A stretch of 64,000 nt of DNA from Bacteroidaceae bacterium (GTDB lineage Bacteria; Bacteroidota; Bacteroidia; Bacteroidales; Bacteroidaceae): the NCBI GenBank assembly GCA_017965425.1, contig JAGCPY010000067.1:1-64000 (forward strand), in the 5' to 3' direction. The notes below the pieces were generated by a model. The model did not search any database and was not told the DNA's origin. It saw only the letters and a program-made list of their open reading frames with translations. How positions within the stretch are numbered: the first letter of the stretch is position 1; every line of letters starts with the position of its first letter. Shown here piece by piece: positions 1,870-36,260 of the stretch. The position numbers and the translations under genes are program-made.

Positions 1870-1951
1870 CCCTCACCGATGGCGATAAAACACAATCAAT
1901 GAAATATTTACAGGTGAGAGATTGGTGAGGGAATGGTGAGGGATGGTGAGG
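1870..1951 (+). repeat. Iteron hairpin unit A
   Basis: CCCTCACC at 1870-1877 is followed by a spacer of exactly 35 bp and then four GGTGAG(A/G) motifs beginning at 1913, 1924, 1935 and 1945, with steps of 11, 11 and 10 bp. The first motif can pair with the downstream ones to form a hairpin. Five further units with the same 35-bp spacer lie in the window. Confidence 0.8.
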
Positions 1952-2580: not shown

Positions 2581-2662
2581 CCTCACCTCCCCTCACCACT
2601 CCCTCACCATTCCCTCACCTGAAAGCACCTTTCTTTCAGTCGATTATAGCATTCGGTGAGGG
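2581..2662 (-). repeat. Iteron hairpin unit B (reverse orientation)
   Basis: Four CCTCACC motifs begin at 2581, 2591, 2602 and 2613 (steps 10, 11, 11). A 35-bp spacer (2620-2654) and GGTGAGGG at 2655-2662 follow. Read on the minus strand this is the same architecture as unit A, with the same 11-11-10 stepping. Confidence 0.8.
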
Positions 2663-14363: not shown

Positions 14364-14460
14364 GGGTCACCTGCATAACCGTGTGGATTAACCAAAGATC
14401 TTGAGCAGTCTGAACATCATGGTTGTAGTGTACGCTCACACATGGTTATGCAGGTGACCC
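14364..14460 (+). repeat. MITE-like inverted-repeat element, copy 1
   Basis: A 97-bp element with ends GGGTCACCTGCATAACC and GGTTATGCAGGTGACCC. The terminal inverted repeats are about 22 bp long with a single mismatch. The internal sequence contains AAAGATCTTGAGCAGTCTG. It differs from copy 2 at one position only. Confidence 0.85.
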
Positions 14461-16309: not shown

Positions 16310-16406
16310 GGGTCACCTGCATAACCGTGTGGATTAATCAAAGATCTTGAGCAGTCTGAACATCATGGTTGTAGTGTACGCTCACACATGGTTATGCAGG
16401 TGACCC
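16310..16406 (+). repeat. MITE-like inverted-repeat element, copy 2
   Basis: 96 of 97 bases match copy 1 at 14364, in the same orientation. The right end is followed by GAAATTTC, which also precedes the left end of copy 1. Confidence 0.85.
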
Positions 16407-16478: not shown

Positions 16479-16505
16479 TCTTGTTTTTCCTAACAAATCC
16501 CTCAA

Positions 16506-16586
16506 TCCCTCACCTTTTAACGCATCTGACTGTCAAACAATAGTTTACTGGTGAGGGATAGGTGAGGAATAGGTGAGGGATAGTGA
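16506..16586 (+). repeat. Iteron hairpin unit C
   Basis: TCCCTCACC (16506-16514) is followed by a 35-bp spacer and GGTGAGG motifs beginning at 16550, 16561 and 16572. A decayed fourth copy lies at about 16583. The steps are 11 bp. It is paired head-on with unit C2, 29 bp away. Confidence 0.8.
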
Positions 16587-16615
16587 TACATTTACTGATC
16601 ACCTGAAAGACATTC

Positions 16616-16698
16616 CCTCACCAATCCCTCACCTATTCCTCACCTATCCCTCACCAGTAAACGTTTGTTTTTCAATGAGAGACAGCGAAAGGTGAGGG
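16616..16698 (-). repeat. Iteron hairpin unit C2 (reverse orientation)
   Basis: CCTCACC motifs begin at 16616, 16627, 16638 and 16649 (11-bp steps). A 35-bp spacer (16656-16690) and GGTGAGGG at 16691-16698 follow. With unit C it forms a large inverted repeat. Confidence 0.8.
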
Positions 16699-16739
16699 AT
16701 TGAGGGATTTATTAGGAAAACAAGTAGTAAGAGGAGATA

Positions 16740-36063: not shown

Positions 36064-36147
36064 TCCCTCACCTTTCGAACCATCAAACTGTCATTCAAAG
36101 ACTTACGGGTGAGAGATAGGTGAGGAATAGGTGAGGGAAGGTGAGAG
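36064..36147 (+). repeat. Iteron hairpin unit D
   Basis: TCCCTCACC (36064-36072), a 35-bp spacer, then GGTGAG motifs beginning at 36108, 36119, 36130 and 36140 (steps 11, 11, 10). The stepping is the same as in unit A. Confidence 0.8.
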
Positions 36148-36178: not shown

Positions 36179-36260
36179 CCTCACCATCCCTCACCTATTC
36201 CTCACCAATCCCTCACCAGCAAGAGCCTTTCATTCAAACACTTATCGCCGAAGGTGAGGG
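36179..36260 (-). repeat. Iteron hairpin unit D2 (reverse orientation)
   Basis: CCTCACC motifs begin at 36179, 36189, 36200 and 36211. A 35-bp spacer (36218-36252) and GGTGAGGG at 36253-36260 follow. It is a head-on partner of unit D, as C2 is of C. Confidence 0.8.

What the first reader, a model, noticed from the sequence alone, without database searches (positions are those of the whole stretch)
16506..16698. New hairpin unit with a fixed 35-bp spacer and 10-11-bp iterons, six copies
Read directly: units at 1870-1951, 2581-2662, 16506-16586, 16616-16698, 36064-36147 and 36179-36260 all have one CCTCACC, a spacer of exactly 35 bp with largely different sequence, then three or four GGTGAGG motifs. 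Steps are 11-11-10 bp in four of the six and 11 bp throughout in the other two. Constant geometry with variable spacer content is not expected from chance or from a simple palindrome. The step of about one helical turn suggests protein binding on one face of DNA. The inverted first motif may form a hairpin or a loop. No known Bacteroidales element that fits was recognised.
Basis: seen in the sequence. Interest (0 to 1): 0.85.

Follow-up and report, generated by a model that had tools for sequence, protein, structure and literature searches.

The report
Inverted repeat-array ends of helicase transposon
The repeated DNA pattern is the end of a small mobile element present in about a hundred miniature copies in this bacterium, and its full-length relatives carry a predicted DNA-replication helicase but no recognised transposase, which points to an unfamiliar way for DNA to copy itself around a genome.

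Summary
The genome (3.73 Mb, probably a rumen Bacteroidales MAG) holds 211 exact, or 236 with mismatches, units CCTCACC-N35-GGTGAG plus a second iteron. In 195 of 219 units scored, exactly four inner iterons stand at 11-11-10 bp. Units come as inverted pairs bounding mostly 165-300 bp intergenic elements. A profile of the unit hits 37 other species of the genus. Of six fetched pairs 1.7-3 kb apart, five enclose a VapE/DUF3874 AAA+ protein, sometimes fused to a BT4734-type primase domain, usually with DUF6078 upstream. The only DUF3874 match of this genome lies inside such a pair. In one congener an internally deleted copy keeps the end of VapE. So the window units are best read as ends of nonautonomous derivatives of a VapE element without a recognised transposase. 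Iteron sequences differ by clade but agree at both ends; the AT-rich 35-bp spacer diverges fast. I infer a PICI-like origin at each end, opened by VapE. No biochemistry was done, no target duplication was found, and paired ends are absent from most named VapE loci tested.

The parts
16484..16720 (.). Miniature element 2 (the given finding): TTTTT end run, two inverted units, about 38-bp centre, AAAA end run
   Evidence: ends by analogy
16500..16514 (+). Outer inverted motif CCTCAATCCCTCACC of left unit
16515..16549 (+). 35-bp AT-rich variable spacer of left unit
16550..16578 (+). Three GGTGAGG iterons, steps 11-11
16616..16655 (-). Four iterons of right unit, steps 11-11-11
16656..16690 (-). 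35-bp spacer of right unit
16691..16705 (-). Outer inverted motif of right unit
1871..1951 (+). Left unit of element 1 (spacer 1878-1912; iterons 1913, 1924, 1935, 1945)
2581..2661 (-). Right unit of element 1 (spacer 2620-2654); element about 790 bp, related to L135, L160, L171, L121
36066..36146 (+). Left unit of element 3 (spacer 36073-36107; iterons 36108, 36119, 36130, 36140)
36179..36259 (-). Right unit of element 3 (spacer 36218-36252)

Best explanation
The units are the two inverted ends of a transposon-like element. Full-length versions in congeners carry DUF6078 and a VapE/DUF3874 AAA+ protein (alone or fused to a BT4734-like primase domain) between two units; the window copies are MITE-like versions without such genes. 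SHOWN by sequence: pairing and geometry; matching inverted ends around VapE in 12 of 12 own and congeneric VapE loci tested; an internally deleted copy in the same genome as a full-length relative; iterons that differ by clade yet agree at both ends; an AT-rich spacer with a few conserved columns and, in one orthologous pair, fast divergence. INFERRED: the element's own protein, most likely VapE through its DUF3874 C-terminus, binds the outer motif and the phased inner iterons as in a phage-inducible-island origin, melts the spacer between them, and starts replication at each end; the copied element is then joined into new intergenic sites by a step not identified here (DUF6078 or host recombination). 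In this genome the one remaining VapE gene could act in trans on the short copies.
For: DUF6078 upstream in L206, L208, L210 and L273-L280. The single DUF3874 match of G000 is inside the L185 pair. Inverted-end score above the best of 200 shuffles in 12 of 12 own/congener VapE loci, against 1 marginal of 12 DUF6078 loci without VapE; also in L296 (Bacteroides finegoldii) and L293 (gut virome contig), 2 of 11 named or virome loci. L215 is L206 with interior deleted, 96% identical over 238 bp including the VapE C-terminus. One unit lies within about 50 bp of the VapE stop codon or overlaps it; spacer GC 36% vs 51% in the loci; PICI origins lie immediately 3' of the initiator gene and have two iteron sets flanking an AT-rich region (PMC6092414 passages); VirE/PF05272 ATPases predicted as MGE helicases (PMC5862659 passages); VapE profile hits PDB 7pds, 'Similar to D. 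nodosus vapE', E 1.1e-6.
Against: No target-site duplication in 98 pairs, no empty site shown, no protein-DNA data. Element ends are not sharp. The L209 pair has no VapE match. 9 of 11 named or virome VapE loci (L294, L295, L297-L303) failed the paired-end test, so pairing is not universal for the gene family. Ends of loci with the same iteron match one another as well as or better than their own partner (cross-locus maxima), and in L208 the direct-orientation score (41) equals or exceeds the inverted one (39). L206 and L207 are one insertion in two species, so the 12 are not independent. G000 has no DUF6078. Iterons stay nearly perfect while other parts are near random, which plain decay of dead copies does not explain.
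Confidence: 0.65

Rival explanations
1. Ordinary MITEs moved by an unrelated DDE or other transposase encoded elsewhere; the VapE gene inside some pairs is passenger cargo.
For: Inverted ends, high copy, mostly intergenic, few with any ORF of 100 aa; long pair L209 without VapE. A transposase was not searched for in G000.
Against: The same one or two genes sit between units in several species with different iteron sequences; VapE ends at or near the unit; an internal-deletion derivative keeps the VapE end; no target duplication.
Confidence: 0.18
2. Host-adopted sites: dispersed binding arrays (regulatory or nucleoid-organising) kept by selection, of mobile origin.
For: 201 of 219 units have no mismatch in the scored motifs while spacers are near random; distance between the two arrays follows a period of about 10 bp; mostly intergenic, 9 of 119 loci with an overlapping ORF of 100 aa or more.
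Against: No candidate host binder identified; not fixed to gene starts: 110 loci with both neighbours split 35 convergent, 55 tandem, 20 divergent; no comparable array in 36 congeners searched with the looser pattern. Units were selected by motif, which inflates conservation.
Confidence: 0.12
3. Structured RNA or DNA hairpin (terminator-like) repeats.
For: Inverted CAATCCCTCACC/GGTGAGGGATTG can pair within a unit; 13 of 99 pairs have near-identical inverted spacers.
Against: No Rfam match in the window at gathering score; the strongest mutual information in the spacer is between near neighbours; pairing broken by the ACTTT iteron form in 37 of 219 units.
Confidence: 0.05

Closest known systems
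Replication origin and Pri/Rep module of phage-inducible chromosomal islands (PICI/SaPI)
   Same: Two iteron sets flanking an AT-rich stretch, immediately 3' of a primase/helicase gene; the VapE profile hits a solved 'Similar to D. nodosus vapE' protein
   Different: Here one such site stands at each end in inverted orientation and bounds the element; only DUF6078 and VapE are recognised between; copied about a hundred times; the space left in the element is too short for integrase, repressor and packaging genes
MITEs of Bacteroidales, e.g. BrickBuilt of Porphyromonas gingivalis (PMC4596501, abstract and outline seen)
   Same: Short intergenic elements with inverted ends and short tandem repeats
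   Different: BrickBuilt is a 23-nt tandem minisatellite found 19 times in ATCC 33277; here inverted four-iteron arrays (11-11-10 bp) with a fixed 35-bp variable spacer and a VapE-bearing relative
REP/BIME-type repeats (recalled)
   Same: High-copy extragenic inverted repeats from one mobile source
   Different: Larger and iterated; a RAYT transposase link was not tested

Membership tests
MITE (nonautonomous element) | Inverted terminal repeats, no genes, many intergenic copies | tested here: met
   (9 of 119 loci have an overlapping ORF of 100 aa or more; L185 carries VapE)
MITE (nonautonomous element) | Derives from an autonomous parent with the same ends | tested here: met
   L215 vs L206 in one congener; in G000 only shared ends with L185; that the parent is autonomous is inferred
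MITE (nonautonomous element) | Target-site duplication | tested here: not met
   no convincing excess of direct repeats at any offset in 98 pairs; fuzzy ends may hide one
PICI/SaPI-type replication origin | Two iteron sets flanking an AT-rich region | tested here: met
   definition from PMC6092414 passages. The outer set is one and a half motifs
PICI/SaPI-type replication origin | Lies immediately 3' of the initiator gene of the Pri/Rep (VapE) kind | tested here: met
   for one of the two units in full elements
PICI/SaPI-type replication origin | Initiator binds iterons and drives replication | not testable with these tools
   needs biochemistry or a plasmid maintenance test
PICI (the whole island) | Integrase, repressor and packaging genes | tested here: not met
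   DUF6078 and VapE fill nearly all of the 1.7-3 kb between units; ORFs overlapping them in other frames were not searched
DDE/HUH/serine/tyrosine-recombinase transposon | Element-borne transposase or recombinase | tested here: inconclusive
   none recognised by Pfam in six proteins or three DUF6078 proteins; DUF6078 fold has no convincing PDB match, so a hidden nuclease is not excluded
CRISPR array | Direct repeats alternating with unrelated spacers of equal length | tested here: not met
   one spacer per unit between inverted motifs, spacer has conserved columns; cas genes not searched
REP/RAYT | GTAG/CGTC-tagged palindrome with RAYT transposase | not tested
   RAYT not searched

The most novel reading that the evidence does not exclude
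A new class of recombinase-less transposon that spreads by replication: a PICI-Rep-like VapE helicase (with or without a primase) fires two inverted origins that are also the element's ends. The melted spacer is repeatedly resynthesised and so mutates several times faster than its surroundings, and one helicase copy in trans maintains about a hundred origin-only miniatures.
Probability: 0.37. Interest if true: 0.93.

Novelty: categorically new. Interest (0 to 1): 0.86.

Why it matters
VapE-like genes turn up in many Bacteroidales records and their ATPase had been predicted to be a mobile-element helicase (PMC5862659 passages). This work gives part of the family DNA ends, a partner gene (DUF6078), miniature relatives and a testable binding-site code that changes between clades. 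If the mechanism holds, it adds a helicase/primase-driven way of genome colonisation to the known transposase classes, and it offers a natural case where spacer DNA inside a rigid protein-binding frame diverges fast.

Full report
OBSERVATION. Ten matches to CCTCACC-N35-GGTGAG stand against none in 100 shuffles. With a second iteron required there are 101 + 110 exact matches, or 116 + 120 with up to two mismatches.

ANATOMY. I fetched 125 stretches around listed units (not every unit of the genome). An oriented scan found 219 units in 119 of them, 201 without mismatch in the scored motifs. The scan itself required near matches, so conservation of those motifs is inflated; bases not used in the scan (outer positions -13 to -7, third and fourth iterons) are still about 92-99% conserved each. 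Consensus from outside inwards: T run, about 4 bases, A run, CCTCAATCCCTCACC, 35-bp spacer, GGTGAGGGATT-GGTGAGGGATA-GGTGAGGGAT-GGTGAGG. In 195 of 219 units there are exactly four iterons at 11-11-10 bp. CCTCACC to the first iteron is 42 bp, four helical turns. The spacer is AT-rich (GC 36% against 51% in the loci). It keeps T9 A10, Y16 T17 G18, A25, T31 T32 and little else: two random units agree at 16.8 of 35 positions.

PAIRING. Units face each other (+ then -) in 99 detected pairs, one of them an overlap artefact in L085; 98 were used. Most elements are 165-300 bp. In the 66 shortest, the gap between the two inner arrays clusters near 5, 15, 25, 34, 43 and 55 bp. This period of about 10 bp is far from uniform, though copies related by descent are not independent. 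In 13 of 99 pairs the left and right spacers are nearly identical (28-35 of 35); in the rest they agree at about the random level or a little above. Elements are mostly intergenic: in 9 of 119 loci an ORF of 100 aa or more overlaps the element region.

RELATIVES. The exact pattern is in 1 of 393 genomes of the order, this one; that sample lists no other member of the genus. A looser pattern (N20-50) gives 298 matches per strand here and 0-3 in each of 60 relatives, 36 of them congeners. Most of those look like chance, but G010:C47 later proved to be a related unit, and G014 and G018 each have one match with N = 35.

THE PARENT ELEMENT. Several congener matches are + / - pairs 1.7-3 kb apart. 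Of five fetched (L206-L210), four hold a VapE-like (PF05272) plus DUF3874 (PF12990) protein; in L210 it is fused to a BT4734-like primase domain (PF08800). L209 has no VapE match. A sixth pair, L274, holds both genes. Upstream stands DUF6078 (PF19555) in L206, L208, L210. L207 shares the left flank of L206 over 509 bp and part of the right flank, so it is the same insertion in a related species, and has lost most of DUF6078. G000 has exactly one DUF3874 match, inside the L185 pair, and no DUF6078. In L185 and L274 the element begins at the 3' end of a gene whose product looks like a dockerin protein by eye.

TEST OF THE ASSOCIATION. DUF6078 occurs in 82 of 139 congeners and 11 of 393 genomes of the order. 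I fetched 20 DUF6078 loci with wide flanks: eight chosen because VapE or a unit had been seen near, twelve without. All eight have VapE (L273-L280), the twelve have none, so this is not an unbiased rate. For 12 own or congener VapE loci (L185, L206-L208, L210, L274-L280; L273 left out because the contig ends in VapE) the two ends match as inverted repeats better than any of 200 shuffles. Of the 12 DUF6078 loci without VapE, 11 did not and one was marginal, 30 against 29. Two cautions from the same call: loci with the same iteron match each other's ends as well or better, and in L208 the direct-orientation score was as high as the inverted one (41 against 39). Among 11 named or virome loci, L296 (Bacteroides finegoldii NZ_OY725909.1) and L293 (MT836291.1) passed and nine did not; in L300, L302, L303 and L293 the gene bounds were approximate. 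In L301, one of those nine, an inverted array stands after VapE (by eye). So paired ends characterise a subset of VapE genes.

A CODE THAT CHANGES TOGETHER. By eye, the inner iteron and its outer inverted copy change together: GGTGAGG (G000), GGTGGCAG (L275-L277), GGTGTAG (L278), TGAGGG (L206-L208, L274), TGGCAGATG (L279), GTGAGGGATG (L280). Loci with the TGAGGG iteron have the closest VapE proteins: L207, L208, L274 are 98, 84, 80% identical to L206, the other eight 38-63%. The spacer core TAA-N4-YTGA recurs in several iteron types (by eye).

MINIATURES FROM THE PARENT. In congener G530, L215 on another contig is L206 with its interior removed: three blocks of 145, 92 and 238 bp at 88, 97 and 96% identity, the last including the final 24 codons of VapE. 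L223 in G525 likewise keeps a VapE end. This is the usual relation between a MITE and its source.

FAST SPACERS. Between L206 and L207 the two spacers differ at 12 of 56 positions, the other aligned positions at 102 of 2257, and the left flank at 11 of 509; Fisher p = 1e-5. Pooled over all aligned unit pairs of G000 (not independent), variable spacer columns differ at 47.5%, outer flank 26.4%, inner part 20.0%, iterons 10.6%, conserved spacer columns 12.3%. In two subfamilies aligned on their own, the spacer exceeds both flanks in one (22% against 20% and 15%) and not in the other (19% against 31% and 17%).

MECHANISM. Passages of PMC6092414 say that PICI origins lie immediately 3' of the initiator gene, that two iteron sets flank an AT-rich region, and that primase and rep are sometimes fused. 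Passages of PMC5862659 predict VirE/PF05272 ATPases to be helicases of mobile elements and list BT4734 as a primase family. Each unit here has a similar build, and one of them lies within about 50 bp of the VapE stop codon or overlaps it. The inference is an origin-like site at each end, opened by VapE. How the copy is inserted is unknown: no convincing target duplication was found in 98 pairs, and the DUF6078 model (pLDDT 92.5) has no convincing structural relative. Near-perfect iterons beside near-random sequence mean either selection on the sites or turnover with fast spacer change; I cannot separate the two.

LIMITS. All genomes of the genus are unnamed and mostly incomplete; several counts rest on listed or fetched subsets as stated. 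A transposase was not searched for across G000. Nothing about binding or movement was measured.

Noticed in passing
window 14364-14460 and about 16311-16406: Another repeat: GGGTCACCTGCATAACC ... GGTTATGCAGGTGACCC inverted repeat about 97 bp long, found at 14364-14460 and seen again just left of element 2.
   Followed up: no
window 1810, 35983; L069, L161, L147 flanks: Palindromic GGTGTACACC / GAAGGTGTACACCTTCC blocks accompany the outer side of one end type in many copies.
   Followed up: partly
window about 2140-2470: CCCAGGGC ... GCCCTGGG inverted repeats inside element 1, apparently another repeat family inserted there.
   Followed up: no
L042, L044, L048, L049: Units identical to those of this genome appear in two other public MAGs from a yak rumen sample (RGIG10252, RGIG10247), probably mis-binned contigs.
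   Followed up: partly
L294, L297, L298, L299, L301: In Bacteroides records, VapE/BT4734 genes sit beside HU-family genes (with amidase and DUF4248 in L301); in L301 an inverted iteron pair stands after the VapE gene.
   Followed up: partly
L085 1566-1751: Element with overlapping units of both strands, maybe a collapsed or nested copy.
   Followed up: no
L209 614-2453: A 1.8-kb pair of GGTGAC-type units without VapE match or other long ORF.
   Followed up: no
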